A DNA stretch of 64,000 bases from Nautilus pompilius (taxonomy: Eukaryota > Mollusca > Cephalopoda > Nautilida > Nautilidae), in contig JACATO010000132.1 of the NCBI GenBank assembly GCA_018389105.1, positions 124,001-188,000 of the forward strand. The letters are read 5' to 3'. This document shows, one piece after another, positions 36,920 to 61,825 of this stretch. Under the pieces are notes generated by a model. That model was not told the DNA's origin and ran no database searches. It saw nothing but the letters and a program-made list of their open reading frames with translations. The position numbers and the translations under genes are program-made. Position 1 is the first letter of the stretch; every line of letters starts with the position of its first letter.

Positions 36920-39534
36920 ATTCCATGAATTGTTAATGTTTGTGATAGTTTTCATTGGGCAGCTGCACTTTGTGCAGCCATCTTGGAAATTGTCAGAATG
37001 TTTGTGCATTCTTTGAATGAAAAAGGGCTAAAGCAGTTGAATAAACAAGGTTTTGCTTACTGTGGTTGATAATGAAAAGCCAGTTTACAAAAACTGATTC
37101 TACTCTTAGAAAGGAAACAAAATAAAAAGAAAAAGAGAACTAGGAGATATTGAAACCAGGTTGCTCTTTTGGTTGGGGATATGTAGCATTTGGCAGTCAG
37201 TCAAGGAAATGCAAGCAACCAAAATATTTATATCTTATCTTATGACCTTCAATTATTACTGCTGTTAACCATGATAAACTACTTATTAGATTTTGTAAGC
37301 AAGAAGTGTCAAGGGAAGATGGTGGATTATGTTTGTATTCCTAAACTTTTTAGGAAAAAATGAATTTTTTTTTTTCATTTTGTACAAGGGTGACTGTTAT
37401 GTACGGCATGTAAAATTGCGAGTGTTTTAGGGATTTTAGTATAAGCAAACCAAATGCAAATCTTTGCTCTTAAAAACACTATCATGTCTTGGCAGTGTAA
37501 AATTAAACATTGGTAAATTAAGAGTACTTTTTCAAAATTTCATATGGTGGCAATGTTACATGGAAATAGAAATTATATGGTTGGTTTAGGCATTTCCCAC
37601 TCCACCTTGTTAGTAGAACTAATTTTAGAAAGCCTTTGCCGGTCACTGCTATAAGGCTGCAGTTTTATGAAGGACTTATCTAGAATACAGTTATGATGTA
37701 TTTTTTAGCCCAGTGCTATAGCAAGCTACACCATTGGGACAACTGGCCAATTATTTAGTACTTTTGGGGATCTGTAATGATGATGGTTTTAGGAAGAAAT
37801 CATTTAAATGTAGGTTCTCTAACTAATAAGGTAATGAGGAGATGGAAAGTACCTGAACTAACATTTAGTTTCCAAACATCAGGTGGCATGTTAAAAATAT
37901 CAGATATATTACTAATTTCTTAAAATATAATGACATCTAGTGGAATTTTGCAAGTGATGTTCTAAAATAATCAAGAAACATTTGGTAGTTCATGAAATAG
38001 TGAACATTGTTTTGCAGTAGTTTTATATAACATTTTGTATGTAATTTTTGTTTTGTACTGTTACTTACATAGAGGTTGCCTTATCCAAAAACTGAAAATC
38101 TGTTTTCAAGTTTTAAGTTTTAACTACATTCTATAGAAATCATACTGTAGTCATGTACACAGACAGAGCGAGTTTCTCTTGTACCAAAATGTAGAAGACA
38201 AATTGGAAATTACTATTTTTTGTCTATACAGACTTTTTGAAGCTGCATTTCTCACATTTTCTTTGAATACCAGTAACCCAAATTAGCATTGATATAACAT
38301 GACATAAGAAAAAATCATTCAAGTGCACGCACACACACACCTTGATTTCTCTTCTAGCTGTGCTCACATGAGTGTGGCATGTAGTGCCATCAAGAATATG
38401 AACAGGAATCTCAATCTACCCTTGTTGGTACGGTGGCAGGTATGTCTTAAAAATGGCAATGAACATACCATAATTGAAATGTTCTTTGACAAACACCAAT
38501 TTGGCCTTTCCATTATGTCAGATTATAGCTCTTAATGACACTGCTTTCATAGCTGCTTTTGAAAGTCCTCATTAGATCTGCATATCCCCAGGTGTGATCT
38601 TGATGTGAATTGCTGAAACCCAGACTCATTAAAGAGCAGATGCTGCCAATACGTAAGGATCTTGCCAGGCATCCTTTGACCAGACTTTTACAAAGTGTTT
38701 TATTTCTGTTGGCAAAGATGGTGGCATGTTCTTTGGCTCATTTATGTTGCATGGGCAATATCAGCAAGAGAATGTTGATGGTGAGTGATGATATGGTGTC
38801 TTTATTGGTGGTCTTGAAAAATGTCAAGATCTTAGGGAATCTGTTGTTGATTCTGGCTACATTCTGAATGGCCTATAACATGGCCAGGTAAACAGAAATA
38901 TTGCAGAATTCACCTGTCTTTGGCATGATGATAGTGCATGCTAGTTATCTTCTCACCTAGATGTTCACTATATACATTATCATACTTGAAATATGTAATT
39001 GTGATCAGAAAACATTGATTTATGTTTGGTTGTCAGATTAATATGATAGGGCATTTTATGTGTAAACTTGTTGAATTGATGTAGTTTAATTTAGTTGATG
39101 ACTGTAAAAATAAGACAGTAGATTAATTTTTGGAGGCATGTAAATTATGCAGTATCTTTTATTTTGGACAAATTCTGTAATATCTCATAATTTTGGCAAC
39201 TTATTTTAAGATTAAACATATAATAGATTTAATTGATCTCTTCCTCTTGGCAAATATTCTCAATTATATTATGTTATACTGCATATCTATTTCTTTATGT
39301 ATTTTTTAAATAACCATAAATCATTTTATTGTTTACTTTTTATAAACACTAGTGGCCATTAATGTGGACTCACCAATGAAATATTTTGATAAAAAATATA
39401 TTGCAGGTTCCAAGTTCCATATTATATTGATTGGTGACTCCATAATTATGGCTACCAGTGCATCTAAGACCTAAAATGGATAATTTTTCTATAGAAGAAG
39501 AAAATTGTTTCATTAATTTTATTATTTGTTCTAG
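36920..39534. other. Non-coding DNA upstream of the first PLC-gamma exon seen
   Basis: Probably intron. AT-rich, with no gene recognised. I looked for the preceding PLC-gamma exon (the segment encoding the first PH-domain strands) and did not find it. Frames at 38323-38867 show no domain. Confidence 0.45.
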
Positions 39535-39684
39535 TGAATCTACGTGAAGTGAGGGAGATTCGACCTGGAAAAAACTCCAGAGACTTTGAGAAGTGGTCTG
39601 ATGAAGCACGAAGAGTTGACAAGAATTTGTGTTTTGTGATTTTTTATGGCAATGACTTCAAGATGAAAACATTGTCTGTGGCAG
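39535..39684 (+). CDS. PLCG1: Phospholipase C gamma exon, PH domain second half
   Basis: A 150 bp exon with acceptor 'ttatttgttctag' and donor 'g|gtaaga'. It starts at codon position 2 (a Val codon completed from the previous exon) and ends after position 1 of the next codon. It encodes about 50 residues beginning NLREVREIRPGKNSRDFEKW and continuing with CFVIFYGNDFKMKTLSVA. This matches the N-terminal PH domain of PLC-gamma, where 'REI-EIRPGK-SRDF' and the 'FVI-YG-F--KTLS' strand are hallmarks. PLC-gamma hydrolyses phosphatidylinositol 4,5-bisphosphate downstream of receptor tyrosine kinases; this PH domain helps membrane targeting. It joins in phase to the exon at 42951. The symbol follows vertebrate naming; invertebrates usually have a single PLC-gamma gene. 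Confidence 0.93.
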
Positions 39685-40350
39685 GTAAGAATTAGTTCTT
39701 GGAATTTTGTTGATTAAAAAAAAGAGGAGACATTTTTTGGAGAATAGGTCGATGTGAAGTATAACTTGAATTGGCTAATTTTCTCATTTTTCTTTCCTTC
39801 CTTTATAGATAAGCTGATTTAGAGTTAAAGATGCAGCTAGATCAACTATAGTAGTTAGGCAAAATTTCAACTAGTCAGAACAATATGTCATATCCTTCAT
39901 AATACTGTTGCATTGCATTGCATTGCATTGCTGTCTGCAATACGTTTAGGCTCATGAATATTAATGATCTGTTTGTACATATCACTGAACTGTTCTGCAG
40001 GATGATTTTCTGGATAAATTGGGTATTGGAGTAGTTTTCCAACATGTTTGTAATCATTGAGAGATTTGAAACTATTATCATTGGTTTTGGTATTGAAAGC
40101 CCAATGTCTGTTTTTAGTTACTGCATGATGTTGGTGATCATCAGGTGATCATTTACTAATTGCACTGTGTTGAATGGCCTACTTTAGAAAGCCAAACATG
40201 TCATTTTTATCTATCTTCAATACTTTTATTTCATTTTGAGATATTACAGCACATTCAAATTTAGAAATTCAATTCTCAATTTCAATTTTTATTGCAAAGA
40301 TTGATATTCAGCTTGTCATACATTTGGGGTCCACAACTAGCCAACATGGA
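39685..40350. other. PLC-gamma intron, 5' part
   Basis: Intronic AT-rich DNA. It contains a short perfect (TTGCA)n run at 39909-39931. No element is firmly recognised, although 39875-40350 may be the decayed 3' continuation of the minus-strand pogo-type fragment at 40361. Confidence 0.5.
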
Positions 40351-41059: not shown

Positions 41060-41123
41060 TTCTCTCTCTATCTCTCTCCCTCTATCTCTCTCTCTCTCTC
41101 TCTCTCGCTCTCTCTCTCTCTCG

Positions 41124-41185
<62 letters not shown>

Positions 41186-41292
41186 ATCTCTCTATCTCTC
41201 TCTCTCTCTTCTCTCTCTATCTCTCTTCTCTATCTCTCTCTATCTCTCTCTCTCTATCTCTATCTCTCTATCTCTCTTTCTCTATCTCTCTT

Positions 41293-41325
<33 letters not shown>

Positions 41326-41348
41326 ATCTCTATCTCTCTATCTCTCTT

Positions 41349-41400
<52 letters not shown>

Positions 41401-41411
41401 ATCTCTCTCTC
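41060..41411 (+). repeat. 350 bp (CT)n / (CTCTCTAT)n polypyrimidine tract
   Basis: A near-uninterrupted pyrimidine strand of CT units with TATC interruptions at recurring 8-14 bp spacings. The purine/pyrimidine strand asymmetry could support triplex (H-DNA) structure. The two long Ser/Leu open frames across it (131 and 151 codons) are artefacts. It is intronic, about 1.5 kb upstream of the exon at 42951. Confidence 0.95.
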
Positions 41412-42144: not shown

Positions 42145-42877
42145 TTAGGTTGTTACAAAAGTTTTGTTGGTTTTGTTACTGCAACAATGAGACTTCATGT
42201 TGTTGCTGTATGTGATGTTTATTAATCAAAGTAAGTTCCATTACAATCAATACACTTCTGCAAACAAGTTACAAGTGGATTTATACCATTTTGAAAAAAA
42301 TCTGGATTTCTGGAGTCGATAAACCGATTCAACTCATGAGACATCCACTTGTCAAGCCTTTTCACCTTGCTGATTGCGTCAAGATGCCAGGAAACAGTTG
42401 CAGTGCTTACATCCAGCTCTCCAGCAATTTCTCGCACTGTTTTTCTTGGATCAGTTTCAACTGAAGCTTTCAGACGGTCGTCATCACAGCTGGAAGGACA
42501 TCCGCTATGTTCCTTATCTTCGAGGCTCACATCTCCTGATTGAAGCTTTGCATACTATCATTGTACAGTACACTCATTTGCTGTATCCTCGTCCCATGCT
42601 TGCTTAATGTTACGAGTTGCCTCGCTCACTTTGTGGCCTGGTTTGAACTCATGAAGCAAAATGGCCCAAAAAAACTTTTCTATCCATGCTTCACTCAGAA
42701 CCCTGAAACAATTATCCATTTTATGATTTTTAAAAAGGTAGGTTTTGCATAATGTCTGCCAAAGAACATACTACAAAACAATATATAACTTATCTACATA
42801 CACCCTCACAAGCAGGCAAAATATGAACCTCAAATTAACATAATATAAAAACTGACAAAACTTTTGTAACAGACTAA
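42145..42877 (-). mobile_element. Deleted mariner element, copy 1
   Basis: Ends at TA 42143-42144 and TA 42878-42879. The left end reads 'ttaggttgttacaaaagttt' and the reverse complement of the right end reads 'ttagtctgttacaaaagttt'. At 733 bp it is about half the length of an autonomous mariner (about 1.3 kb). It carries a minus-strand transposase with the catalytic middle removed. It lies only 73 bp upstream of the 3' splice site at 42950/42951, so it ends within the region where a branch point and polypyrimidine tract would lie. Confidence 0.9.
42222..42530 (-). pseudogene. mariner transposase, HTH fused to C-terminal tail by internal deletion
   Basis: The open minus-strand frame of about 102 codons starts MSLEDKEHSGCPSS and runs through the mariner second HTH (DPRKTVREIAGELDVS, then HLDAISKVKRLDKWMSHEL). 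It then jumps directly to the mariner C-terminal tail (FIDSRNPDFF, LQKCIDCNGTYFD). The roughly 180 residues in between, with all catalytic Asp residues, are gone, yet the frame remains open across the junction. The product would be a small DNA-binding protein with no transposase activity. Whether it is expressed is unknown; an in-frame deletion by chance is the simplest explanation. Confidence 0.85.
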
Positions 42878-46000: not shown

Positions 46001-46818
46001 TCACCATAAAGGTAAAACATGCCGAAACTTTACTAAAACATCACAACTTTTATTTCAAAGCTAACTTGCTTCAGAACTTCATGTTGAAACATATCTCAAA
46101 AAGGGGAGAATTCACTAAATTAATCCTTTTACTAAAACATTCTCAATCTTACCTTCAAGCTGAATAATTCTAAAAAAATTCATACTGAAATATTGCAAAT
46201 TTATTGAAGCTTTAAATCTTTTAGATTCCATCTATCTACAAACAAGCTTTGCAAATTGTAAATCTAATTGAAGACATTATTTATTTTTTTTTTCGAGTTC
46301 ACACAATCACATCAAGCTATTAGTTTAACCTTAAAATTAGAAGTAGAAAATTTAAGCTTTCACTATTCATATTTAAGAAAAACTTAGTCACTAGCTTAGA
46401 TAATTAATAGTTTGGATTATATTTAAATTGGCATAAAGGAAGTGTGATAATGGCAAAAAGAAGTAAAACAAAAAACGTGGGCTGTACCTCCATGAAAATG
46501 TAAAATAAAAGGAAGTAAAGTTGTGGGCACTTGTTCTTCAGAAGCTTTCAGATGCTCTGGCAACACTGATAATGTTCTGAAGAGATACAAAATCAGGGCT
46601 ATTTTTCATTGGCAAATAATGTTCAAGAAACCAATTTTCATAAAACTTCTGCTAAATAACAGATAATTTTGAATGTAATAAAACGGTGAATCCACTATAC
46701 TTCACTTTGGTTATTTATCACTAATTTCTGGGCATAAGTAATTTAAGTGTGGTGGAAACTTGTCAGGTGTAGTTTTTAAATGGCTTTGAAAATATGCATT
46801 GTTTTTGTTTATTGTCAG
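43045..46818. other. PLC-gamma intron, about 3.8 kb
   Basis: Intronic AT-rich DNA. The 108-codon minus-strand frame at 44315-44641 and others have no domain. A degenerate repeat at 45941-46200 is listed separately. Confidence 0.6.
45941..46200. repeat. Degenerate tandem repeat, about 98 bp unit, three units
   Basis: A block resembling 'catcacagatcttactttaa' followed by 'agctgaattactt' and 'gccatatcaaaa' recurs from 45941, 46039 and 46138 (spacing 98 and 99 bp). The second and third units are preceded by 'tttactaaaa'. Units are strongly diverged, so the array is old. Confidence 0.65.
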
Positions 46819-46866
46819 GTGGTTAAGGAAGGAATTCTACCTCATGGAAAAATTAGGCTCAAATGT
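46819..46866 (+). CDS. PLCG1: Phospholipase C gamma microexon, PH to EF-hand linker
   Basis: A 48 bp exon with acceptor 'tgtttattgtcag' and donor 'aatgt|gtaagt'. It completes the Arg codon of the previous exon (AG + G) and encodes WLRKEFYLMEKLGSN plus two bases of the next codon. The 'RWLR--FY' string is a hallmark of PLC-gamma just before its EF-hand region. A shorter donor two bases upstream (aaat|gtgtaa) would change the phase, but the chosen one fits the consensus better. The next exon, starting in phase 2, was not found in the remaining 17 kb. Confidence 0.88.
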
Positions 46867-47936: not shown

Positions 47937-49582
47937 CCATATTTGTCGGCTTATAAGTTGATACTTTTTTCTGCAAGGGCCTGACCACTGACTTATATAT
48001 GGATTAAATCATGATACCCGGGAACACGGGACCCTTAAGTACCATAGGGAAATTTATGTATGATTGTGGATGCATGCTGACTCAGATTCAGTTACCTCCC
48101 TTTTATTTAGTGCTTAGAGAGCACAGATATCATTGTGTTAAGGGAGCTTCAATCACCAAAGTTGAAAAAAAATACCAACCCTTACTTGAAAATGCCTGCT
48201 ATAAAGGAAAGGAAAGCATGTACAGCAGCTTTGAAACTGAAAGCAGTGAATTTTGTTGAAAACAATGGTGGAAATATGGCAGCAGAACGGCAGTATGGTG
48301 TTAGTGAGAAATGTATTTGCGATTGGCAAAAAAGTGAAGGATTCATTACGAAATACTGAAAGAAGCAAAAAAAAAAGCAAACCGTGGTTGCAAAGTGAGA
48401 TGGACCAATGTCAAAAATCAGCTTGAAGACTGCTTTGACACAACATGCTACGTGCCGTGGACTAAATACAATCTAATTACGAACGAAAACCCAACAAATT
48501 ACTGAAATATAGACAGTATACAATTTGTCCTGGAATGGGTCACCTGCTGCTATTTTGGAATCTCTACACAATTATTTACTGCTGAAAAAACATTGCATGT
48601 CTGACTGTGTTTATTATTTGATTATGGAATTTTTTTTTTTTTTAAATAGTATAGTAAAAGGTGAGAAACCTTATTTTTTTTTGTAGATTTTGTGTTCTTT
48701 TCCTTGCAAATATTAATTTTTTTAAAGTTCCTAAATCTATCCTGTAGAAATTAAAATTTTGTAGAGAGTTGAGTTACAATAACTTACCATTTCATGACAA
48801 ATGTGTTTGGAAAATGGATCGAAGATACCCTATTTGAAAAAACATCACAGTTTAAAAACTACTAAAAATATAAGATTTATTTTTTAGGTTTACTCCAAAT
48901 ACATGTAATGTTATTATGTCCAATTTTTGTGCATGTATGTAAAGAGGGTAAGAAGTATTTAGACCCATTCTAGATGACAGACCCTATACAAAAAATCCGT
49001 CTTTCCTTAAGTCGTCGTCATCATCAACACCTGTTCCGGCTTCATGTCATATGGCATTTTATAATTTCCCTTCACTCATCTCTATCATGTGGTTTGTGTA
49101 TCAATGTCTGTATGGTCATGCTTTTGGATCATAGATCTCTGTTGACCTGGGAGGCCCACATTGTCTTCGTTCTTCTCTGAGGACAATTTTTAAACAAAGA
49201 TGGTTTTTGTATCACTACACAAACGCACAAATAATGCAATCTAAATGTTTATATTGCTATACTCACTAATTTCTAAGAACTATTTCTCAGGGTTTACATA
49301 ATTTGTAACACCATAGACATGATTCTGATAGGCAAAATTCATCAAACTGTGTTCCATACAGATTGAAGCTTCATTTTGCCTTCATTCTGTTTCATTCCCC
49401 AAATGTCTTGCTTTGATGTTATCCACCATTGCTGTTGTATAACCCTGACAGAAATTTTATACTGTTATTACTGTACAAAAGTACATTTGTACTATTGGCT
49501 TATACACCACTTTGACTTATATGTGAATGAAGGTTTAGAAACCAGGGAAAATTGACCTATTCACATAACCTGAAAAATATGG
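47937..49582 (+). mobile_element. pogo-type DNA transposon, copy 2 (same family as 5360-6128)
   Basis: Bounded by TA at 47935-47936 and 49583-49584. The left end reads 'ccatatttgtcggcttataa' and the right end, reverse-complemented, begins 'ccatatttttcaggttatgt'. The first about 430 bp and last about 240 bp match copy 1 closely. The interior between about 48430 and 49330 has no counterpart in copy 1. That interior contains no DDE core either, so it may be residual element sequence or a later insertion. It is inactive. Confidence 0.8.
48192..48475 (+). pseudogene. pogo-type transposase N-terminal region
   Basis: From the ATG at 48192 the frame reads MPAIKERKACTAALKLKAVN, then NGGNMAAERQYGVSEKCICDW, stopping at 48359. 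This is a psq/Brinker-type helix-turn-helix as in pogo transposases. After a frame change the sequence continues RGCKVRWTNVKNQLED, the start of the next conserved block, then degenerates. A run of ten A residues at about 48369 probably caused the frame loss. No catalytic domain follows. The first HTH is better preserved than in copy 1, with no internal stop. Confidence 0.75.
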
Positions 49583-49894
49583 TATTTTGAAAATGAAAAA
49601 GAAAAGTTGGTAAAGTAAATAACATTTTTTCAAATATCTACATTAACCTCAAAGATATAGAGGTGTGAAAAAAGTATATTAAAAAAGTAAATAAATAATT
49701 TAAAGAATTTAAATCACAAATTGAAACTTATTTTTGCCACTTTTTTAAAACACATTGAAAAGTTTTTAAAGAAGATTTTGCATAATAAATGAACAATGAA
49801 ATCGTGAAAAGGTTTGAGTCTGAAAACCTTGGCCTATTTTAAACCCAAAAAACTGATGACAAAAAAACTGAAAAAGTGTCTTATGTTACTTGTT

Positions 49895-51190
49895 GATTTT
49901 GAAAGTATATTATAACCAGCAGATATTACATAAAAATTAACAAAATACTGTTGTAGATGCAAGTCAAAATAATGAATAAAATCCTTTTGTATATAGAGCA
50001 AAAAATATGTGAAGAATCAGACAACATGGCTGAAACATTGATCCTGGCTATGCTATTGAATATGAAATACATAAAATTTCTAAAACTTTGTAAAACTTAG
50101 TGATGATATATATTTTTTAAAAAATCATCAAAACTTTATAAATGTAATATCTTGTCTGATTTGCAAAAAAAAAACATTTGGTTTGTCAGATAAAAAAGGT
50201 TAGAGATCATTGCCAGTTGAAACGTGCTGCACATGCTGACTATAATCTGCTGTTATCTTTCTAATGCAGTCTCTTTTTTCTTTTAAAGTTGTAACTAAAA
50301 AATGAAAAAGTATTATGCTTTCAACATCAGATCTGGAAAAAAAAATATCCTTTTCTCTTTTAAAGAAGTATTAGATGAAGAATTACTACAACTAAAAAGG
50401 GTGGAAAAAAAAATCAATAGGACATCAAACGAATGATTTTGAGATTTAATGGTGCAAGTGTTGAGAGACTATCTGAGCATTTGAAACACCAAGTAAAGAC
50501 ATAAATGAAGGTGTTTTATTTCTTTATTCTTGTATCTCTAGTCCAGATAGATTTAACAAATATTAATCTTAAGTTAAAATATTTTTATATAGATAGAACA
50601 AGCAAAACTGATAAAGAATTTGAGTATTGTAAAATTATAGCAAAAAATGTGTAGCTTAAAGACTTGGTGAATACAGTGATATACATAAGCTCTAATGAGT
50701 TACTTTTTGCTGATGTATGCTTAAAAGCTTATAAACTAGACCCATGTCAGTTTTTTAGTGCATCCTCTTTAGTTTGGGCAGATTGTTTGAAATTACAAAT
50801 TAAACTAGTGCATTTGACTAAATATCATATGATATGATGATTGAACAGGGCATCAGAGGTGGTAATTTTCTTTGTATCAGATCAATATGCTACATCTAAA
50901 TCTGAAAATACTATATAACAATGAAAAGTTTAAAGATGTAAAATCTGGTGATACACTAAAACTAACAATGAAAGAGTGTCAGTCTTTAAATAAAGATTAT
51001 GATACATCTAAAAAATAATTTATTTATCATCTGTCTAGATGCTTGTAATCTTTATGGTCAGACAGTATATCAACATTGCCGCCAGGTAACTTTTGTTGGT
51101 TATGACAAGATCAAACTACAAACTTTGCCTGATTATGTACAAAGTTTATAGCTGACTCAGAGATAGGTGTTGTTTATGAAGTTAATCTGG
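49895..51190 (+). pseudogene. Protein-primed family B DNA polymerase relic (viral/Polinton type)
   Basis: Motifs appear in the order expected of Polinton/adintovirus-type PolB but in shifting frames. A 'VDFES' exonuclease-region motif is at 49892-49906. A Cys-x-x-Cys block with 'FGLSDKK' is near 50150, followed by 'VRDHC' at 50199-50213 and then 'AAHADYN'. 'YKLDPCQFFSASSL' is near 50730, and 'GIRGG' at about 50849. Polymerase motif A 'CLDACNLYG' is at about 51032-51058, and 'DSEIGVVYEVNLE' near 51150-51190. The frame then stops at a hAT-like terminus (ctgtgcttctcaacc, 51193). Motifs B and C (with the second catalytic Asp pair) are missing or beyond the insertion. Many stops are present; it is not functional. 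No restored reading is attempted here. Confidence 0.7.
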
Positions 51191-51192
51191 AA

Positions 51193-52900
51193 CTGTGCTT
51201 CTCAACCTTATTTGATGATAAAACCATTTTTGGAGCTGGACACTGCATTGCAGAAATCCATGATGCACATCACTGAAAAACATCTGATGAATGTATTTCA
51301 ATAGCAAACCACACATGCACACCTTACAAATATGATTCAAGAATTACACAAAGTACATTAATTAATGACTGGCTTGCTGCTACTTTAATTTAATCATAAG
51401 ATCAAACTAAGGAATATATTTGAAGACAGTGCATTGTATCACAAAATCCAGGTTTTTTCTGAGACTGTTCCTCATTTTTGTTTTGATTTGTGTGAGACAA
51501 GAAAGTCCCTTCTCACAAAGATAGGTGTTTGGAAACTGAACAAGGGTTTTGATAGCCACCTCAAAAATTATGGGCATATCAACTTTTATCAACAAGGATG
51601 CCCAAAACCTTTCTCTGTCACCATTGAATCTTTGAAAGAGGTTCTTCAGAGTAATATTGTTGTGGAGTTTGGTGAGGAGCTCCATAAGCTCTGCGTTTTT
51701 CTGCGTGGTATGGTTTTGAGTAGAAAATGGATCCTGCGTGGTATGGTTTTGAGTAGAAAATGGATCCAAAATACATTGCCTTTCCTCCAGCCTAGTGACT
51801 TCTTTGGAATGTATATTGCAAAATTTTTTCTAGACCTTTCAGATGAGAGGGCACAAGTTCTTTTATCTCTTTAAAATCATCTGCATAAGCATCTGAAAGA
51901 ACTTGTAGGGTCAGAAAGCTTGAGAAATCTCTAAGCTCTACCTTGCCTTTACAAAATTTGAGCATCTTGAATACCTCCACTTTGATGTGTTGAGTGAAGA
52001 CATGAAGACAGTCTCATGGCCTTAGCCTTAGATTGAAAGAGTTCACCAGATCAAACACACATGCCAGGTAAGCCAATTTAAATATCCAAACAGGATCAGC
52101 AAAAAGTGAAGCCTTCCTTCTCCTTAATCAAAAAACACTAGAATTTCCTCTTGTAATTTGAACACCTTGTTGAGAACTCTTCCACTCAACAGTCAACTGA
52201 GTGAAGCAAGATCATTTTGTACTTGCTCCCATTTCCTTGCACAGTTTTTCCATTACCACAAGCCTTGATAGAATTTACAGGTTTTATCACATCTTCCAAC
52301 ACAGCCTCAAGTTCCTCACTGATATCCTGCAGTAAATTGTTTAACAGCAGGTGCCTCGCGATGAATGATGCAGTGCTTCAAAACATTGGGAAGCAACTGC
52401 TTGTATTCTGGTAATCACTCTCGAAACTATCCCTGTCATTGTTGTTGCTCCATCTGTGGTACTAGCTGAGCATTTCTTCCAGGGAATGTGGTGTTTTTTC
52501 ATGAAGTCCGACTGCTCACGTCAGTAGATTCGTTGATCTGCAGGCCAAACCGGCAGGTTGCTCAAAGTTTTTGAAGCAACCGATCTGTCAGGTTGAGACT
52601 GATGTCTAAAGCATCGTGTCGTTGGACAAAGACTGCCCTTAACTCTCCTTACAGCCTTTTCATCATGAATTTCTTCAGCTGCAATGATAAGGCTTGGCTT
52701 GATGACATCTCAGTGAATGTCTGCTTTTGCTTACACAAAACACCAGCAGTGTGTCATGATGCTCTCAACAGGTTTGCATGTTGATGATTAGACAACATGG
52801 TAGACTTGAAGGAGTCCTTGTTGCTGGTTTGTCTTAAGCTGATCTCCACAAATCAGACATTCTCCTCCTGGTTCAGAGCACAACATTTGATCATTAGGAA
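51193..52900 (-). pseudogene. hAT transposon (ZBED/SCAND3/FAM200-type) inserted in the polymerase relic
   Basis: The left end 'ctgtgcttctcaacctta' at 51193 resembles hAT termini. On the minus strand the order is normal for this group. A BED-finger-like CLICGDQ is near 52855. 'SSQALSLQLKKFMMKRL' is near 52690. 'LRDFSSFLTLQVLSDAYADD' is at about 51930-51870. The C-terminal dimerisation block is at 51620-51410 (RFNGDRERFWASLL, LVQFPNTYLCEKGLSCLTQI, KTKMRN), the most conserved part of hAT transposases. Several frameshifts and stops are present. An exact in-frame 33 bp tandem duplication lies at 51701-51766. The right terminus was not identified. Confidence 0.75.
51701..51766. repeat. Perfect 33 bp tandem duplication inside the hAT relic
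   Basis: Two identical 33 bp units (51701-51733 and 51734-51766), each beginning ctgcgtggtatgg and ending atggatc. On the minus strand they duplicate an 11-residue DPFSTQNHTTQ segment in frame. Perfect identity in an otherwise decayed sequence suggests a recent event. Confidence 0.95.
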
Positions 52901-53544
52901 GAGATAAAATCTAATAACAATGGAGTCCTCATTCCATTCCATTGACTTATTTCCTGTACTAAGATTTGTAATCTTTATGGTATTGGCAATATATTTTCTC
53001 TTTTGTGGCTACCCCATAACTGAGTTGCATAAGAAATTTGCCAGAGTTAACTGCTTCATTGTAAAAAAAAAAAAAAAAAAGTGTTCAGTTAAACAAATTA
53101 TAGTAATGAATAATCATTCAGTCTTTTTAGTTGGTTACATTTTAATGAATTATTCTAGCAACACTTGAAATCCGCTGCAGTACAGTGAAAGTAGATTAAG
53201 GTAAATATGATACGGTAGGCCATGTACTTTTTCATTGAATTACTCAATCTTTAGTGTTCTATGCACCACGCTAGTTAAAACAGATAAAGTTAGTACATTT
53301 TTAATATCCTGTTCTCGTTACTAAATTAATTGTTGGATTTACCTTTCTGACCATTGACTTTGGAATCTTAAATCTTCGCAATATTTGATGCTCAACATGT
53401 GACTGCTGTCCAGCTTCAGACTTCTTGAAAACAGTAACCAAACCATTTGCTCAGTTTAAAATTCACATAGCAACAATAACAATCTCCCATTCCTCTTTAG
53501 TCTGGCCTTTTTATATAGCCTGACCTTGCCTGAAGTGAAAAACG
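52901..53544. other. Spacer between hAT and mariner relics, possibly holding more polymerase sequence
   Basis: The string 'gtaatctttatggt' at about 52968 repeats the polymerase motif-A DNA at about 51045. The frame just after it contains YPITELHKKFA, resembling the 'YP--LH' block that normally follows motif A in this polymerase type. This may be the other side of the hAT insertion, but the similarity is short. A run of about 19 A residues lies at 53061-53079. The rest is unassigned. Confidence 0.3.
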
Positions 53545-54196
53545 TTCAATATGGTTAGGCACCTTGTCTCTGTTGAACCACTGTGCTGATCGTTTGTGAT
53601 TGTCGTAAAGGATCCATTTTTCATCACTTGTAATGATTTGGTCAAGAAATGGGTAATTTTTCTTATGACAAGCAAAAAGCAGATCTCCAATTGATGATTT
53701 TGTTGTTTATTGAATTAGTGAGGCACGCACTTGTCAAACTTTTTCTCCTTGCCAGTTGTGTCAAGATGCCAAAAACAGTTGTAGTGTGTATGTCAAACTC
53801 TCCAGCAATTTCTTGCACTGTTTGCGATCTTCATCATAGCTGGAAGGATGTCCGCTACGTTACTTATTTTCAAGGCTCACTTCTGATCGAAACTTTGCAA
53901 ACCATCATTGTACTGTGTGTTCATTTGTTGTGTCCTCACCCCAGCTTGCTTAATGTTACGAGTTGCCTCATGAAGCAAAATGGCACAAAAAACTTTTCTA
54001 TCCATGCTTCACCCAGAACCCTGAAACAAATGTCCTTTCTATGATTTTTGAAAAGGTAGATTTTGCATAATGTATGCCAAAGCACACACACTACAAAACA
54101 ATATATAAATTATCTACATACACCTCACGAGCATGCAAAAAATTAACCTCAAATTGACATAATATAAAAACCGACAAAACTTTTGTAATGGCCTAA
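53545..54196 (-). pseudogene. mariner element, copy 2 (truncated)
   Basis: Same family as 42145-42877. The right end (TA at 54197-54198) and the following about 200 bp match copy 1 closely. On the minus strand the HTH region is recognisable at 54000-53760. After an internal deletion the catalytic block IITSDEKWILYDNHKRSAQW appears at about 53645-53570, containing the first conserved Asp of mariner transposases. The left end is missing. Stops and deletions make it inactive. It lies inside the viral relic. Confidence 0.8.
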
Positions 54197-54198
54197 TA

Positions 54199-54588
54199 GA
54201 ACCTTCAGTGGCTATTTTACCCTTCACTGCAGTTTTAACAAAATCTCTTTCAATTTTTCTCTTAAATTAGAATTTTGAATATTATTAAGATAGTTCATTA
54301 AATAGATATCTTTTTGTATAGTGTTTTTGTCTTAAATTATGCTAATAAAATATTTGATCTTTTGCCTGGTTTTGGAGAATTTTCTGGATTTAATTTTAAA
54401 TCTAATAATGTTCTTTACCATAGTAATTATACCCTGATATATTTTTTTTAACAGAATATTTATCTCAGGCTTAATCACGAAGCTTTTCTAAAGATGATTG
54501 TATAACACCTCCAATGATTTTATTCCTGTGAGGCAAAGCATGTTATTCCCACAAATTCCACATATTTGTGTTAACATCAGTCTATATA
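54199..54588. other. Unassigned spacer
   Basis: AT-rich sequence between the mariner and Ginger-like elements, perhaps viral in origin. No domain is recognisable in any frame. Confidence 0.35.
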
Positions 54589-56497
54589 TTATGGTCAGAA
54601 CCTGAAATTGGCCAGTATTCATAAGGGCCAGTTATTGTCAATATTGGCCAAATTGACTGGCCAATCAACATCTCAAATATCTATGAAGAAAAATAAAATG
54701 TTTCAGACAATGGCTTGCCAATATCGGTAATGTCCAGGCTGTTGGCCAAAGTTGATTATCCACCATGTTATTCGGTTATGTTTTTTTCTGTGAATTACAC
54801 ACAATGGGCATCAGTCTGTGTAATTCCTTTGTGGTTTTAGGATTCTTTTGATGTTTCCTATCTGGCTTAACTTTTATTTTGTTTAACAACAACTGTCTGA
54901 AAATTTGGGTGATAACAATATTAATAGTTTTGAGGGAAATGAAATGGGAGTGCAGTCAAAAAGCATGTGAGAAAAGGCAACAATAGCATGGTCTTTTCTA
55001 AAATAAATACTGTCAACTCATAAGGAAGTGAAAGAGGGCAAAGGTGAAAAATGAAGTACATGTTTGTTGTTCGAATTGATTTGTGATTGGTGTAGGCACT
55101 AATGAGAAGCTTATTGTGCTAGTTATTGGCAAAGGAATGAAGATTTAATATTATATACACAAAGAGGAGTTATTGGACTATTTATTTTGTTATTGGTGCA
55201 CCCACTATATTAGAGCCTGACATTGGCAGAGAATTTTGAAGTCACTGGGATCTCTGAAATGTAGCCAAAACCATTCAAGAGAAACCTTGTCAAAGTTAAG
55301 TGTCTGTGGAGCAAGTTAACCAGGAAGTCTGAAAAAATGATGATAACCTGAATGTAAACAAACAACTCATTGCATGGGCTAAAGGTCTTCAAGGAAGAAT
55401 CAAAAGTGAGATACAAATAACCTCAGTACACAAGAAACAATCAACATGTACTACTGGAATTAGTAACCAGGAAGATCAACTCAGTGAAGAAAAACTTGCT
55501 CTTAAAATAGCTATGGAATTACAAAAATATTTCTTTCTTCCTGGTTTGTGAAAAAAGAATGCACAGGTCTCATAGTTGTAAATTGGGCAACAGATGTGTC
55601 CATGCATTGAGCAGAGTTTCTTCTGGCAAGGAAATGGAAGGATATGGCTCCAAAGTGGCTACTCTGTTTGGATATGGAAAAAAACAACAAAAGGAAACAC
55701 ATTGAACGTCACACTAGTTTGCACACCCAGCCTTCTGAAATGCTAAAACAATCGGACACTAAGTTTCCACCAGCCAAAGTAGGGGATTGCGGTAGTACAA
55801 ATACCTTACCCATATTAAGATAGGAGATCCAAGAAACACATTGTTTGCGATCATAACAGATGATGAAAATCATAACTTTATGCTCAAAGCTAATTCATGA
55901 TTTATACAGAAAAGTTATTGACTGTAGAATATGTATGCAAAGAGGAAAAACCATTGTGAGGAGTGGCTTCTAGTCAAATATTAACTGGAGTGCAGGGATA
56001 CACAAAGTGCTCAAGCACACTTAGATGTAATACAGAGAGCTGCAAGTGTAAAGAGAGCCAAGAGAATTTTCGGTAACTCAAAGTGCCACAGTAGTATAGT
56101 CTGCTGCAAATTCTCATGCCACCTTGCTGTGAATTAAATAATTCTTCAATTGTATTTTAAAATATGATAATGCTATTTTTGTAATACATTTTCTACATAA
56201 TACATCTAATTTTTAAAAGATTTTGTTAGTTTTATCAAGTTTAGTTTTATGAGTAAATCAAGTTTTATGAATGAATGTGTTTTGTCAATTTCATATTAAA
56301 TGTTTTATAGTCTCATGAACTAAACAGCATGGTCCCTTGAATAAATTTAGATTTCTAACTTTGGCCAGCAGAATCTTAGTCAATATTTATTTTGTTCAGC
56401 AAAGGCCTGAAATTCTTGATTTTTCTAATTATTTCAGACATTGACCATGGCCGATACTAATAAGGACCACTGGCCAGATTAAAAATTTTGGTCATAA
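54589..56497 (+). mobile_element. TIR-bounded DNA transposon of Ginger/KRBA2-like type
   Basis: The left end 'ttatggtcagaacctgaaat' followed by 'tggccagt' pairs with the reverse complement of the right end, 'ttatgaccaaaatttttaat' followed by 'ctggccagt'. The inverted match extends at lower identity through 'gtcaat'. The interior, about 1.9 kb, contains + strand remains of an integrase-type protein C-terminal region (separate entry). TIRs around an integrase-like gene with a C-terminal Cys-rich domain fit Ginger-type elements or the related KRBA2-like family. The target duplication is unclear. Confidence 0.55.
55375..56135 (+). pseudogene. Ginger/KRBA2-like integrase C-terminal region, decayed
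   Basis: In shifting + frames three conserved parts can be read. A zinc-finger-like segment is at about 55590-55690 (CVHAL, GKEMEGYGSKVATLFGYGKK). An SH3-like 'KFPPAKVGD' followed later by 'NTLFAIITDDENHNFMLKA' is at about 55755-55890, typical of the domain after the integrase core. A C-terminal cysteine cluster is at about 55985-56110 (GVQGYTKCSSTLRCN, ESCKCKE, then NSKCHSS). This order is what I know from KRBA2-like proteins of invertebrate Ginger elements. The catalytic DDE core upstream is not recognisable. The frame at 55375-55550 (QGRIKSEIQITSV and following) is unassigned. Confidence 0.55.
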
Positions 56498-56814
56498 CAA
56501 ATGTTCTCTTACTGATATCCTGTTACTTTTTTAAAATTAGTTTCAGTTTTACATTTTATGCAATTAATTTTAGTAATGTTTCATATATAATTGAGTCTTA
56601 ATCCAGAGTTTCAAGAGAGCATGTATTCCACGATGCTTATTCTTCAGTTCTTCAGATTCATCTCTAGTTCCAGCATAAGATTTTTGGTTGTGATTTCGTA
56701 GAAAGGGACTGGGATCCAGTATAGCAGTTGTCAGAATTATTTTCCTTAAAGTGAGCACGAAACTAAATGAATAAGTTTAGAACATTGGAAAAATGAATAG
56801 TAAGAATTATTTTT
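56498..56814 (-). other. Unassigned segment with a 62-codon minus-strand frame
   Basis: Between the Ginger-like element and the ATPase relic lies an open minus-strand frame, 56758-56570, Lys/Leu-rich, with TRDESEELKNKHRG in its middle. No family is recognised. It could be a small viral gene on the opposite strand or a chance frame. Confidence 0.3.
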
Positions 56815-57290
56815 TTACTTCCTAAAAGTCTATCTGGGTTGGTTATAGGAGAAAGAGGATGTGGCAAAACTGCTATTCTTATGTGCACATGTTGTTCTAG
56901 ATTATGGATTTTAGATTATTCCAGAATATGGGTTTGCAGAATCTTTATACCAGCCTGGTTATCAAAACTGAAAACGATCTGTTAATAAGCAACAGATAAA
57001 TAAATATCTCTTCAAATGAAAATGCATTAACACACAAATTTAGATGCCTATTATTTCATAAACATTTTGAAAAGGAACAAAAATGAACTAGAAATAGGTG
57101 TGGAATACTTTAAAGATCCAGATGGATTGTGATTCGAATGAGATTGATTCAGAATATTTGGGATGCATTAGTTAGGTTAATAAGAATGAGTTTTGATGAA
57201 TTTAATATTTTAGGAAAGTGTTGGAAGTTAGATGGGTTTGTGGTTACAGATAAATCATCTAATAAGAGATAACAATCATAGTTTGTTGAA
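56815..57290 (+). pseudogene. Viral packaging-type P-loop ATPase relic
   Basis: A Walker A motif GERGCGKT is encoded at 56848-56871, preceded by hydrophobic 'GLVI' and followed by a helix, as in FtsK/HerA-type packaging ATPases. After a frame change the next block reads SLYQPGYQ at about 56940-56965, a conserved string after the first strand-helix in the animal Polinton-like ATPase group. Near 57194-57260 'FDEFNILGKCWKLDGFVVTD' resembles the C-terminal Cys-Trp / strand block. The middle part with Walker B is missing; the whole is about 158 codons where the family has well over 200. Stops and frameshifts show it is dead. Confidence 0.5.
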
Positions 57291-59394
57291 TTTTATTATG
57301 ACCTAAAGATTCTTCAGCAACTTTGCTGATTCTGTAGGCATCTCCACTTTGTTTAATGATATAATCAAAGCTTCCTACAAAATCAATTTTTTAAATATAT
57401 GAAATGTTTTTTATATAAAATAAAAACAGGAAAGATTAAAGAATTTAAGTATTTCATCTGATCTAAAGAGAGATTAAAGAAAGTTTATCATTAAAAAATT
57501 GGTGAACAGGATTTTAATACTAAAACTAAATTATTTCAGCTAATTACAAATGGAAAGAAGCTCAATTACTTACTTAAAATCTAGAAATGGTACTTTTAAC
57601 ACCTAAAAATTAATACCAATAGAAGAAAATTAATTGTTGAATGTACCTGTTCCTTTTATCAATTCTGCAAGCTTTTTTAATGGCTGACAACAAAGTGGAT
57701 GCAGCTGCTGAAGAAAATTGAGCTTCCAAGGATATCAGTTTCTGCATTTGCTTTACAGCATTGAAATCTAACAAATATTCAGTTGAATTACCAAATCAGC
57801 TTAGTATTGATGATGATTATAGAATTAACTCAGTATGGGAACTTTTAGCTTAAACAAAACCAGATGAAAATATTCCTTCAGAAGTAGAAATTAAAAGTCG
57901 TTACAATTTTAATGTGCAGCTTATCTATTTATCACAACACTGATGCTTCACAAATTAAATTACATTCAAGTAAGTTATAAATAGAACAGATATGTTGCTT
58001 CTGAACTAAGGTGAAGATAAATTATTTAAAGTCCAGCAAAAGATTAATCTGGACCACGAAAATTTAAACTACAGAGCCAGACATATCTGGGTGAAAGTGA
58101 TGCTGCAGGCACCTTGGTAGAACAGGTACTATATTTTTACTTTCATAAATTGAAAGATTTAAGTTTACTTTTAGCATCTAATCAAGCTGTAATGATGAAG
58201 CTTTTAAGGAAATAAATGTAATTGCTGATCATTTGTTGTTATTAAATTTTTAATAGAAAAACTAATGTTTTAAACAATATAAATATTTGAAGAACTCGTG
58301 TATAAAATAGTAAAATGAAGAAACTCAGCAAGTAGCAGTAGACCTGAAACTCAAAGATTCTTAGTTTTGTTTTATGATCAAAAACTACAAATGTACAGAT
58401 TTTTCTCAAATACTAAATTTAGATTCTACAAAACAACATGAAATTATTCTAATTAATCTGAAGAGAGAGAGCTCTCTTTCAAATGCAAGTACCACAAATA
58501 ATATTTTTAAATAAAGAACTGATAATTGAATTTGATAAGCAATAAGGAATATTACATTACTTTTAAAGCTAATAATGCTATTATTATTATTATTATTATT
58601 TTATTATTAGTTTTAAATATAAAGTTTATTTTACTGTGGTGAATAGTTCAAAAACTTAAATAACCCTAAAATTTTAGCTTTTGTTATAATGAAAATGATA
58701 ATTCAGTAGATTTTACCACTTTATTGTTCATTGTGATTTAATAAAAGGTTAAATATAATGGACATAGCTCTCAAATGTTATATGAGTTTTTTCCCAAATG
58801 TTTCATTTTTTTAAGCATTAATTTGAATTACAGTTTAAGAGGAAAATAGTATAGATCTCTGAAATGATGTAATATCTATCTCTTAGATTGCATTTTAGAC
58901 AAGTTTAAAAGGTGGTACTTTTTTTCGAAAATTAAACATTTAATAGAAAGAAGAGGGATGAAAGAAAAGCTATTATTGAGAGAAATGATACTTTAAGGAA
59001 TCCTTTAGTAGAATGGCTGGATATGTTCTTAATAATCCAAAAACAACAAGCTATGGGAGATAGTGCTGAAAGTATTACCGAAGCTAAAAGATTTTTTTTT
59101 TTAACAAATAAATCCAAACTCTATTGAATAATTCTAGTAATTCTAATAGTTAATACAAATTAAGTCTATTCAAGGCATACATTTTTTAATTGCTGGATCA
59201 GGAACTCAAAGACTTATGGAAAATTAATTAAAAAAAAAATTTTTCTTTAAAGCAAATAAAAATGGAAAAAGGATTTCAGAAAATTGGCTAAAACTGCTAT
59301 AAGATCAACTTGGATGTTTATAGATTTTTTGTATGTTAAATGAAATATAGTGACATAGCAAGAGATTTAGCTATTGATGAAACTATAAATAAAT
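57291..59394 (+). other. Decayed region between ATPase and capsid-like gene
   Basis: Probably minor viral genes. Open + pieces include one starting MADNKVDAAAEEN at about 57681 and one containing RNDTLRNPLVEWLDMFLIIQ at about 58983-59050, which is hydrophilic then helical. I cannot assign either. A (TTA)n run is at 58578-58609. Stop density is high. Confidence 0.35.
58578..58609 (+). repeat. (TTA)n microsatellite
   Basis: About ten TTA units with one interruption. Confidence 0.9.
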
Positions 59395-59990
59395 ATGAGT
59401 TTCAAGAGCGAGTCCATAACTTGCACAAATCTAAGTAATCCTGGTGCAGAATTTGATATTACAATTCAAAATCAAGATGCACATTTGTTGCCCCACACAG
59501 CTGGGCTGGTGTTTAAAGATGAACTTCTGAAAGTTGATAATATATGTTTGGTGAATAATGGTATTTAGCATTTATTTAGTCTAAATATATTTTAGGTGGT
59601 AAAGAAATTGAGACTATACTTTATCCAGGTCAAGCAGCAACCATGAAAAGACTGATAACTTATCTAGATTTTAGTAAATCCAAAGGATTGAATTAATGTT
59701 GGTAAAAAGACAATCAAATTCCAAGGGTAGCTTTAATTTCTATATACCACTAAGTCTCTTTTTTGTTGTTGATTTTGTGAAGGCTATTAAAAACTAGTGT
59801 ATGGAATGAAGAATCAAATTGTTTTGATAAGAGAGAGAATGATGCAATATTTTTAGAGCAAATGGAGTTGCAGTGAGAAAAATTAATTTCTTGAGAATAG
59901 CACTATATAAATATATAAAGTTGTCCGGTGAACAGAGAATAAAATTTATTATAATGCTTGAAAGTAACTTATAATATTAGTTATGCTAAT
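59395..59990 (+). pseudogene. Major-capsid-like protein relic (double jelly-roll type suspected)
   Basis: An ATG at 59395 opens a 57-codon frame, MSFKSESITCTNLSNPGAEF and onward to NNGI, stopping at TAG 59566. In the next frame the sequence continues GGKEIETILYPGQAATMKRL and FSKSKGLN (about 59594-59695). Later IPLSLFFVVDFVKAI appears near 59743, and a weak GVAVRKI block near 59862. The order NPG, then NNG, then 'G-EIE---PGQA-TM', then 'F-KS-GLN', then 'IPL' follows the N-terminal half of capsid-like proteins found beside PolB and packaging ATPases in animal Polinton-like sequences. The C-terminal half is missing. Assignment rests on memory of the family and should be tested by profile search. 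Confidence 0.5.
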
Positions 59991-61825
59991 AATAGGCAGT
60001 GTGCTTTGATTGCAGTTCTACAAAGTTTTATTTTTGATTGGAGGTTGACTTTTTTTCTAAAACAAAGGCAGTAATTTACAGTTTCAACTAAGCGCAAGTG
60101 CTGATAGTATGCATCACAAGCAGCTTGCATCCATATGTCCCTAATTTAGTATTGTTGCCATCACCCGTTAGTTTATTTGTACCATTGTAAGGAGGGGAGC
60201 TGGGAATTGAATTTTAATTTCTTATGCTGGCTTGCAACACTTGTTTTTTTGTTTGTTTGTTCTTAAACTTGTCACACATCCCTGCAATAGACTGAATAAT
60301 AAACCTACACCTTGGACGTCTTTTACCTGCTCTCTGGAGGGCAGTTATGTTAACTTGCAGTAGTTTCTCTTTTTGGATGCAAGTGGTTAGCACTGCTTGT
60401 TTCTGACTTATGTTTTAGCTCACTGTGCCAAGATGCTCCTGGCTCAGGAGGCTACTCACACTGTACAGAAATAGAAGCACCTATTGAAAAAAAAGGAAAA
60501 GAAGAAAAAAGCTTGCACATCTGTTATTGTACAACAAAATGGCCGTCCTCCAGAATAAACCTTGATGTGGCGACAGAGTGGTTATAGCTTCATCAGTTAA
60601 TTTATTCAGACATTGATGATTAGCAGTAAATAAATTACCTGCTTCCTCTAATTAAAACACCCCTCCCTTTCTTTAAATAGCCTTTGTTAAGATAATTTTC
60701 GGGGAAAATCATTGTGTACTCGTTTTATTAATCATCTAGTATCTGAATATCCAGGAGATAAGAATTTTCAGCTATGATTGTGTCACTAAAAATAACGTCT
60801 CTTTTTGATTAAATAATACTTATTGTTGTTAATAAATATATCAAAGGAAAAATTTGGCAATGTTTAAAACAAAAGTACATTCCAACATGAATTCTATCCA
60901 TAATGCAGGCAGAAGTTTAATAAATAGATGGTTTCTCACCTTCAGGGATGTGACTGATTTATTCCACAGTAGATCAACTAATATGTTGCAGCCCCATCAT
61001 TGCCATGTGATGATTGGCTTCTTTGCTCAGAGAAACTTAAGCTAGGAATATTTAATGTTTGCAATGCTAAACTGAAAAGGTTATGTAATATTTTTACTTC
61101 AGGTGCACAGCTGATAATTAAGAACCTTGCAACATAGCCTTGAAAACAAATGATTTGGAAAATACTGGGAAAGAACCAGGTCTGATTCATTTAGTTGAAA
61201 TACATTTGTGGCATATTAAAGATTAAAAAATCATTTGCTGTTCAGGTCTTTATTTAAATGAACATAATTGCTAACGATAATTAAAATAAGATTTTGATGC
61301 TGGTCATGTGAGGTAAAATTAAAAGGAGGGTTGCAAAAGAATATACATAGAGAATATGACAATAAGAAGTTCAGATGAGAATTATCCAAAAAATGAACTG
61401 GGGCCAATACAGGAAAGGGTATCACCTCAAAATCTACAGGAGTAAAAGAAATTAAAGTGAATCAGCAAGACATTTTAAAAACAAGAAATTTAGATTAAAA
61501 GTTAAGATTCCCAGCTCTATGTAACATCTTGATCAGTAATAAAATGAATTTGTAGAGAGAGAGAAATGAACAGTGCAGAGGAATTGATAGACACATGTAG
61601 AAACCTAAATGGTTAATTGTAAGCCTTGAAGAAAAATGAAAGAATCGCAAAAACAATATGTATAACTTTCCTATCCTCAGACTTTAAGAAAAAAAAAAAA
61701 AACTGGGTGAGACAAGTTTTGCTGAAGAATTTAAATTATAATCACTTCAGTTCTCTAACGGATTTCTGTTTTTTGCCTTAAATGTTTTCATGGTATCTCC
61801 ACATCTTCAGAGAAGGTGAATCGAT
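59991..61825. other. AT-rich non-coding, presumed PLC-gamma intron
   Basis: No gene was recognised. The stretch at about 60530-60720 is complex, repeat-free and rich in TAAT cores, as seen in developmental enhancers; this is an impression only. Confidence 0.4.

What the first reader, a model, noticed from the sequence alone, without database searches (positions are those of the whole stretch)
49860..59990. A fossil Polinton/adintovirus-like DNA virus inside a PLC-gamma intron
Family B polymerase, P-loop ATPase and capsid-like gene relics occur in the same orientation within 10 kb, in a plausible gene order. Individually the motifs are short, but their order within each gene and their co-location make chance unlikely. 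Such elements blur the line between transposon and virus, and this copy could represent an undescribed lineage in this host group.
Basis: partly seen in the sequence, partly recalled or inferred. Interest (0 to 1): 0.88.

Follow-up and report, generated by a model that had tools for sequence, protein, structure and literature searches.

The report
Fossil Polinton-type virus in gene intron
A broken, very old remnant of a capsid-carrying DNA virus/transposon of the Polinton kind sits inside an animal's PLC-gamma gene, and it is one of many decayed copies that seem to have spread through that genome in one ancient burst.

Summary
The finding is right. Window 49907-60055 holds a decayed, truncated Polinton/adintovirus-type element. 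Its double-jelly-roll capsid relic is matched by public proteins (best E 3e-19; P0001 1.4e-17 against 0.033 as best of 41 controls). Two of those proteins, and an intact capsid gene near a PolB gene on contig L094, are Pfam DJR-like_dom. The polymerase relic matches an intact PolB at 1.3e-5 (best control 0.10). The ATPase rests on family homology, not on the window alone.

(1) The element belongs to a repeat family: 40 scored capsid loci, window included, of 375 candidates. (2) The family has a phospholipase-A2-like/rve-integrase gene on the opposite strand; its PLA2-like end survives near 54211-54557. (3) Insertions fill about half of the interval, and the relic is cut off inside the capsid gene.

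Twenty sampled copies plus the window form a star tree and the copies differ equally at all codon positions: one burst, then neutral decay, is the likeliest reading. Host: probably Nautilus (inference). New member of a known kind.

The parts
49907..51355 (+). Relic of a family B DNA polymerase gene (protein-primed type by its relatives), many stops and frame shifts
   Evidence: tblastn with intact PolBs: L090 1.3e-5 at 50706-50795, L091 3.8e-4 at 50607-50834, L043 6.7e-4 at 50607-50863; motif DACNLYG at 51023-51073 (E 8 by itself). Aligns collinearly with copies L071 z 11.8, L075 7.1, L074 6.7, L085 6.3 of 8 copies tried; left limit by L075 z 8.8
51356..53547 (.). Later insertion(s), not matched by the 20 other copies; minus-strand frames look hAT/ZBED-like (recall only)
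   Evidence: No match in copies at E <= 1e-4; Pfam on 51410-51829, 51795-52013 and 52521-52709: no family
53548..54200 (-). Mariner-like repeat (name by recall) inserted into the element
   Evidence: The same repeat lies in either orientation near copies L071, L077, L079, L081, L083 at 74-78%; no Pfam hit for 53500-53706 and 53939-54109
54211..54557 (-). N-terminal (PLA2-like) end of the PLA2-rve integrase gene, opposite strand; the integrase core itself was not found here
   Evidence: DNA homology to copies (to about 54513 in most, 54557 in L071) in which the L091 PLA2-rve protein matches the minus strand. In the window alone two collinear minus hits, residues 40-54 (E 37) and 101-127 (E 0.086), not significant
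54558..56506 (.). Further insertion of about 1.9 kb, absent from the copies (limits approximate)
   Evidence: L082, L085, L086, L089 jump from about 54446-54513 to 56507-56537
56507..57300 (+). Packaging-ATPase relic; P-loop GERGCGKT at 56848-56871
   Evidence: Shared with 8 of 20 copies (L074, L076, L077, L079, L082, L083, L085, L089), z 5.2-19.2. A piece of copy L089 at the downstream end matches the L049 ATPase E 8e-4. Window alone not significant
57380..58805 (+). Element sequence shared by copies between ATPase and capsid; gene not identified (minor capsid protein expected by position)
   Evidence: blastn of copies; two long copy pieces from here have no Pfam family
58806..60055 (+). Double-jelly-roll major capsid protein relic, cut off before the end of the gene
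   Evidence: P0003 3e-19, P0001 1.4e-17; L094 intact capsid 5e-13, itself Pfam DJR-like_dom 186 bits. 39 other loci in the genome; in 15 of 20 copies shared sequence goes on beyond this point
39534..39692 (+). Host PLC-gamma PH-domain exon (context)
   Evidence: 50% identity to human PLCG1, E 7e-15

Best explanation
The stretch is one dead member of a multi-copy, probably extinct Polinton/adintovirus-type family. The live element encoded its own family B polymerase (replication), an rve integrase fused to a PLA2-like domain on the opposite strand (insertion; a membrane role of PLA2 is inference), very probably a packaging ATPase, and a DJR capsid protein (particle). Gene order by comparison is PolB(+), PLA2-integrase(-), ATPase(+), unassigned, capsid(+). 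It multiplied in the germ line in one burst from nearly identical parents, and copies then decayed neutrally. The copy in PLC-gamma lost both ends and took at least two insertions. Shown: capsid, PolB and integrase identity, order, repeat family, star tree and equal divergence at codon positions in the sample. Partly shown: ATPase. Inferred: particle formation, route into the germ line, age, extinction.
For: Capsid E 3e-19 to 1e-17 and DJR Pfam membership of relatives. PolB E 1.3e-5 against 0.10 in controls. Co-occurrence: 10 of 40 capsid loci (window included) have an integrase match within 10 kb; 13 of 13 pairs opposite-strand and upstream of the capsid; 0.10 pairs expected. PolB lies near 2 of the 40, same strand and upstream, in 3 of 3 pairs; PolB-integrase pairs are opposite-strand in 6 of 6. 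5 of 20 copies show PolB, integrase and capsid in the same order and strands. L094 has capsid and PolB on one contig; L048 has an rve integrase opposite to PolB right behind it. Burst: internal branches 5% of tree length, mean p 0.303 over 210 pairs; differences 0.310/0.314/0.304 at codon positions 1/2/3.
Against: ATPase not significant in the window; the L092 ATPase finds nothing in the copies. Integrase core not found in the window. Most PolB (33 of 36) and integrase (82 of 95) matches do not lie near a scored capsid locus, so some may belong to other elements, though only 40 of 375 capsid candidates were scored. The codon test uses the window's frames on 492 sites and could miss a small older signal under the later decay. 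L071/L072 are 98% alike: a younger duplication or assembly duplicate outside the burst picture. A candidate terminal repeat in one copy only, no target duplication seen. The 20 copies are mostly the best matches.
Confidence: 0.85

Rival explanations
1. Several related viruses integrated independently over time, each leaving its own fossil, instead of one burst.
For: The 20 copies are only 64-76% alike apart from one pair; some pairs cluster weakly in the tree.
Against: Replicating virus lineages diverge mainly at third codon positions; here positions 1, 2 and 3 are equal, and internal branches are 5% of tree length.
Confidence: 0.12
2. The element moved as a transposon inside cells, without making particles; the capsid gene was a passenger. 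(Compatible with the burst; a rival only on the question of particles.)
For: Burst-like amplification within one genome.
Against: A capsid gene recognisable along most of its length in the family, with an intact relative elsewhere, implies maintenance before the burst. Equal divergence after insertion does not tell the two apart.
Confidence: 0.3
3. Chance motifs in AT-rich intron sequence.
For: Pfam finds no PolB or capsid family in ten single window pieces; the P-loop alone is not significant.
Against: E 1.4e-17 against 0.033 as best of 41 controls; 39 other homologous loci. Intact L048 PolB shows no match to the Pfam PolB model either, so the Pfam silence says little.
Confidence: 0.01

Closest known systems
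Polintons / Mavericks (class Polintoviricetes)
   Same: PolB, rve integrase, DJR capsid and probable ATPase in one repeated element of an animal genome
   Different: Integrase gene starts with a PLA2-like domain and runs opposite to PolB and capsid (how usual this is was not surveyed); the window copy is truncated and without ends
Adintoviruses (animal-associated adenovirus-like viruses with rve integrase)
   Same: PolB, rve integrase and DJR capsid; relatives' capsids recognisable by plain BLAST
   Different: OTU domain of PolB not tested, integrase chromodomain not seen in L091; no reference adintovirus was at hand
L094, JAKSCW010000326.1 (4.1 kb contig filed in a Balneolales MAG; probably eukaryotic or viral contamination)
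   Same: Intact capsid (PF21738, 186 bits) and the first part of a PolB on one strand of one contig; capsid related to this family directly, PolB through L048
   Different: Different source, no integrase seen, short contig; capsid before PolB
L091, CALZFZ010000048.1 (7.2 kb contig filed in a Muriicola MAG)
   Same: PLA2-like plus rve integrase protein and PolB, both related to this family
   Different: Integrase on the same strand as PolB; adenovirus-pX-like gene and a possible cysteine protease (recall) beside it; no capsid seen on the contig
Polinton-type elements L048 and L049 (IMG/VR)
   Same: PolB clearly related; L048 has an rve integrase opposite to PolB and an A32-type ATPase
   Different: Their presumed capsid proteins show no significant similarity to this capsid

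Membership tests
[quoted passage not shown]
   L090 1.3e-5, L091 3.8e-4 in the window; copies L071 2e-25, L077 6e-25. Protein priming itself not tested
Polinton | Retroviral-type (rve) integrase | tested here: met
   Met in the family: 95 matches, best 6e-19, 10 of 20 copies; copy piece L089 rve E 2e-5 but 25.2 bits against cut-off 32.6. Not in the window copy, which keeps only the PLA2-like end
Polinton | DJR major capsid protein | tested here: met
   DJR-like_dom over cut-off in P0013, P0014 (2 of 10 scanned) and L094; copy piece L086 E 4e-4 but 20.0 bits against cut-off 27
Polinton | Genome-packaging ATPase | tested here: inconclusive
   P-loop in the window, traces in copies L077, L079, L085; L089 piece matches L049 ATPase E 8e-4 but L048 ATPase only 0.92; no match with L092 ATPase
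Polinton | Minor capsid protein | tested here: inconclusive
   Shared segment 57380-58805 in the right place, no Pfam family for two copy pieces
Polinton | Ulp1/adenain-type cysteine protease | tested here: inconclusive
   L091:2121-2579 (resembles one, by recall) finds no match in the 20 copies at E <= 0.02; the copies' right parts were not fully fetched
Polinton | Terminal inverted repeats and short target duplications (recalled) | tested here: inconclusive
   Two copies looked at. C1390 has a 77-bp inverted pair at 77% on either side of the gene set, no target duplication seen; C649 gave only a 48-bp pair at outer places. Not possible in the window copy
Adintovirus (features as in PMC11071296, passages read) | PolB with N-terminal OTU-like domain | not tested
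   The window copy begins inside PolB; no OTU search was made
Adintovirus | Hexon recognisable by BLASTp to adintovirus hexons | not testable with these tools
   No named reference adintovirus at hand; Starrett 2021 not held
Adintovirus | rve integrase with C-terminal chromodomain | tested here: inconclusive
   Pfam on intact L091 integrase at E <= 0.01: rve and PLA2-like only

The most novel reading that the evidence does not exclude
A capsid-bearing Polinton lineage with a PLA2-integrase fusion underwent one transposon-like burst of perhaps some hundreds of copies in an ancestor of this animal (probably Nautilus) and died out. Its star-shaped neutral fossil record could fix the age of the burst and show whether a virus-like element amplified inside the genome, and not by repeated infection.
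Probability: 0.45. Interest if true: 0.5.

Novelty: new member of a known kind. Interest (0 to 1): 0.4.

Why it matters
Polintons are held to be both transposons and viruses. A family whose sampled copies differ only by neutral decay lets one ask whether such an element spread as a transposon or as a virus, and when. It adds a well-marked fossil family in a probable cephalopod. It also shows a PLA2-like domain, a kind known from parvovirus capsid proteins, sitting on the integrase gene. I did not see that fusion discussed, but the check was limited: of seven full-text searches two asked about phospholipase (six different papers listed), and passages of two of the six were read (PMC11071296; PMC3671162).

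Tried and rejected
Led nowhere: Pfam on 10 separate window pieces (no PolB or capsid family; weak P-loop ATPase matches). Viral-contig scans with single window pieces (none). Capsid motif scan (33 stretches; none looked like a capsid or matched the window's capsid pieces). PolB motif scan with wrong spacing of mine (0); corrected (14 stretches, 2 PolBs). PF03175 in the own genome (0; uninformative, since no control genome rang either). Protein search with one PolB piece (none) and with capsid C-part pieces A2 (326 candidates, none at E <= 0.01). Viral contigs with A2 and A5: none. phages: two chance-level matches. hhalign of capsid pieces against the presumed capsids of L048/L049: not significant, E 0.85 and 0.93. 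Inverted-repeat search for ends of the insertions: no clear pair. Two non-collinear L074 matches at 49367-49825 (z 5.4, 5.6) and one broader L075 match reaching left to 49116 (z 5.2) were not counted as element. Rfam on the window: no match.

Dropped before counts: I kept the best row for each of 40 capsid loci (65 rows). Copies were sampled as 20 of the 39 loci other than the window, mostly the best-scoring ones; C1882, on a short contig, was passed over.

Because most PolB and integrase matches lie away from scored capsid loci, the confidence of the best explanation was lowered from 0.90 to 0.85.
Full report
What the window is. The window is contig C131:124001-188000 of a 727,640,739-base, 2558-contig assembly. 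A PLC-gamma PH-domain exon lies at 39534-39692 (E 7e-15); a possible next exon at 46805-46852 is weak (E 0.23). SH2 exons lie on the same contig and strand at 220437-225918. The element (C131:173907-184055) therefore lies inside the gene, most simply in an intron; no PLC-gamma match better than E 0.2 was seen within it. That points to a cephalopod, probably Nautilus, but it is inference.

The capsid. Twelve stop-free pieces (one from each of ten copies in the same genome, two from the window), aligned but not joined, found 19 proteins at E <= 1 among 237 candidates, best 6e-27. Of 10 of the 19 scanned, two (P0013, P0014) reach the Pfam cut-off for DJR-like_dom, double jelly roll (27.0 and 42.3 bits, cut-off 27), one lies below it and seven show no such match. 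Searched back against the window, P0003 gives 3e-19 and P0001 1.4e-17. Single stop-free window pieces give up to 4e-10. In 41 controls the best value for P0001 was 0.033. Contig L094 holds an intact capsid gene (DJR-like_dom, 186 bits) and, 0.6 kb further on, a frame with the first part of a PolB.

The polymerase. Intact PolBs were found by a short polymerase DNA motif in IMG/VR (L038/L043; longer as L049/L048) and then in MAG contigs (L090-L094). They match window 50607-50863 at 1.3e-5 (L090), 3.8e-4 (L091) and 6.7e-4 (L043), with a further motif at 51023-51073 that is not significant alone; best controls 0.10 for L090 and 0.057 for L091. Copies L071, L074, L075 and L085 align to 50431-51355 with z 6.3-11.8 (4 of 8 copies tried), and L075 carries the match left to 49907. 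Pfam found nothing in the window pieces, but intact L048 PolB shows no DNA_pol_B_2 match either, so that silence means little.

L091 encodes one protein with a phospholipase-A2-like and an rve integrase domain (42.4 and 45.1 bits, both over cut-off). In the host genome it has 95 matches (102 scored of 268 candidates), best 6e-19, 83 of 95 with stops inside. Single matches span both domains (for example residues 25-283 on C1390), so the fusion belongs to the family. 10 of 40 capsid loci have such a match within 10 kb; all 13 pairs are on the opposite strand and upstream of the capsid; 0.10 pairs are expected by chance. The other 82 matches do not lie near a scored capsid locus and may in part belong to other elements. 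In the window only the PLA2-like end is left, near 54211-54557 on the minus strand. It is identified by DNA homology to such copies and by two collinear but individually non-significant protein matches.

The ATPase. The P-loop GERGCGKT at 56848-56871 is the weakest part. Eight of 20 copies share the segment (z 5.2-19.2), and three of them keep traces of the P-loop (L077, L079, L085). A piece of copy L089 at its downstream end matches the L049 ATPase at 8e-4, the L048 ATPase only at 0.92. The L092 ATPase finds nothing in the copies, and the window alone gives nothing significant.

Anatomy. Comparison with 20 copies leaves these element parts in the window: 49907-51355, 54211-54557 and 56507-60055. 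The rest is insertions: a stretch with hAT-like and mariner-like frames (names by recall; Pfam silent) and a stretch of about 1.9 kb absent from the copies. In 15 of 20 copies sequence shared with other copies goes on well beyond the equivalent of 60055, so the window copy is cut off inside the capsid gene. In the 20 copies, at E <= 1e-3, capsid is found in 18 (they were chosen by capsid DNA), integrase in 10, PolB in 8 and all three in 5, always PolB(+), integrase(-), capsid(+). One of two copies looked at has a candidate 77-bp terminal inverted repeat at 77%; no target duplication was seen.

History. 32 of 36 PolB matches have stops inside (36 scored of 290 candidates). Differences among 20 copies in the capsid pieces are 0.310, 0.314 and 0.304 at codon positions 1, 2 and 3, with no third-position excess (3279 of 5000 permutations at or above the observed value). 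In the tree of 20 copies and the window, internal branches make up 5% of the length; mean pairwise difference is 0.303 over 210 pairs. By the Jukes-Cantor formula (my arithmetic) that is about 0.19 substitutions per site per copy. No neutral rate for this host is known to me, so no date is given. The likeliest picture is one burst from nearly identical parents followed by neutral decay. One pair, L071/L072, is 98% alike and does not fit; it may be a later duplication or an assembly effect.

What is known. Polintons are described with PolB, rve integrase, protease, packaging ATPase and capsid genes, in protists and animals (PMC11071308, Introduction read). Fossil Mavericks of about 100 My are reported in placental mammals (PMC9683012, abstract read). 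Adintoviruses are defined by an OTU-bearing PolB, BLAST-recognisable hexons and an integrase with chromodomain (PMC11071296, passages read). One paper in the library, on the aplacophoran Chaetoderma, holds both 'Nautilus pompilius' and 'Maverick' (only the listing seen), and the held main text of the Nautilus genome paper has neither 'Maverick' nor 'Polinton'. That is not proof of novelty. The kind is known; this family is a new member with a PLA2-integrase gene and a clean burst signature.

Noticed in passing
window 34732-35247 (-): DDE_1 (pogo/Tigger-type by recall) transposase relic, Pfam 64.7 bits
   Followed up: partly
window 30525-30956 (-): Tc1/mariner-like transposase end (recall), weak DDE_3 match (E 0.007, below cut-off)
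   Followed up: no
window 42225-42554 (-): Mariner-like frame (name by recall) with a helix-turn-helix match just below cut-off
   Followed up: no
window 41061-41411: 351-base TC repeat array, about 177 units at 82% match; similar arrays sit beside other copies (L078, L081)
   Followed up: no
window 51701-51767: Perfect 33-base tandem duplication inside the hAT-like insertion, so probably a recent event
   Followed up: no
L090-L094: Five contigs filed in bacterial MAGs (Spirochaetes, Muriicola, an unnamed bacterium twice, Balneolales) carry Polinton-type PolB, some also capsid, integrase or ATPase genes: probable eukaryotic or viral contamination of bacterial bins
   Followed up: partly
L048, L049: Polinton-type elements with very different presumed capsid proteins, one with a GIY-YIG gene and both with tail-fibre-like (Peptidase_S74 or T4 gp36) genes
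   Followed up: no
G000 C649 and C177 (L071, L072): Two copies 98% alike over 3.4 kb while the other sampled pairs are 64-76% alike: late duplication or assembly duplicate
   Followed up: partly
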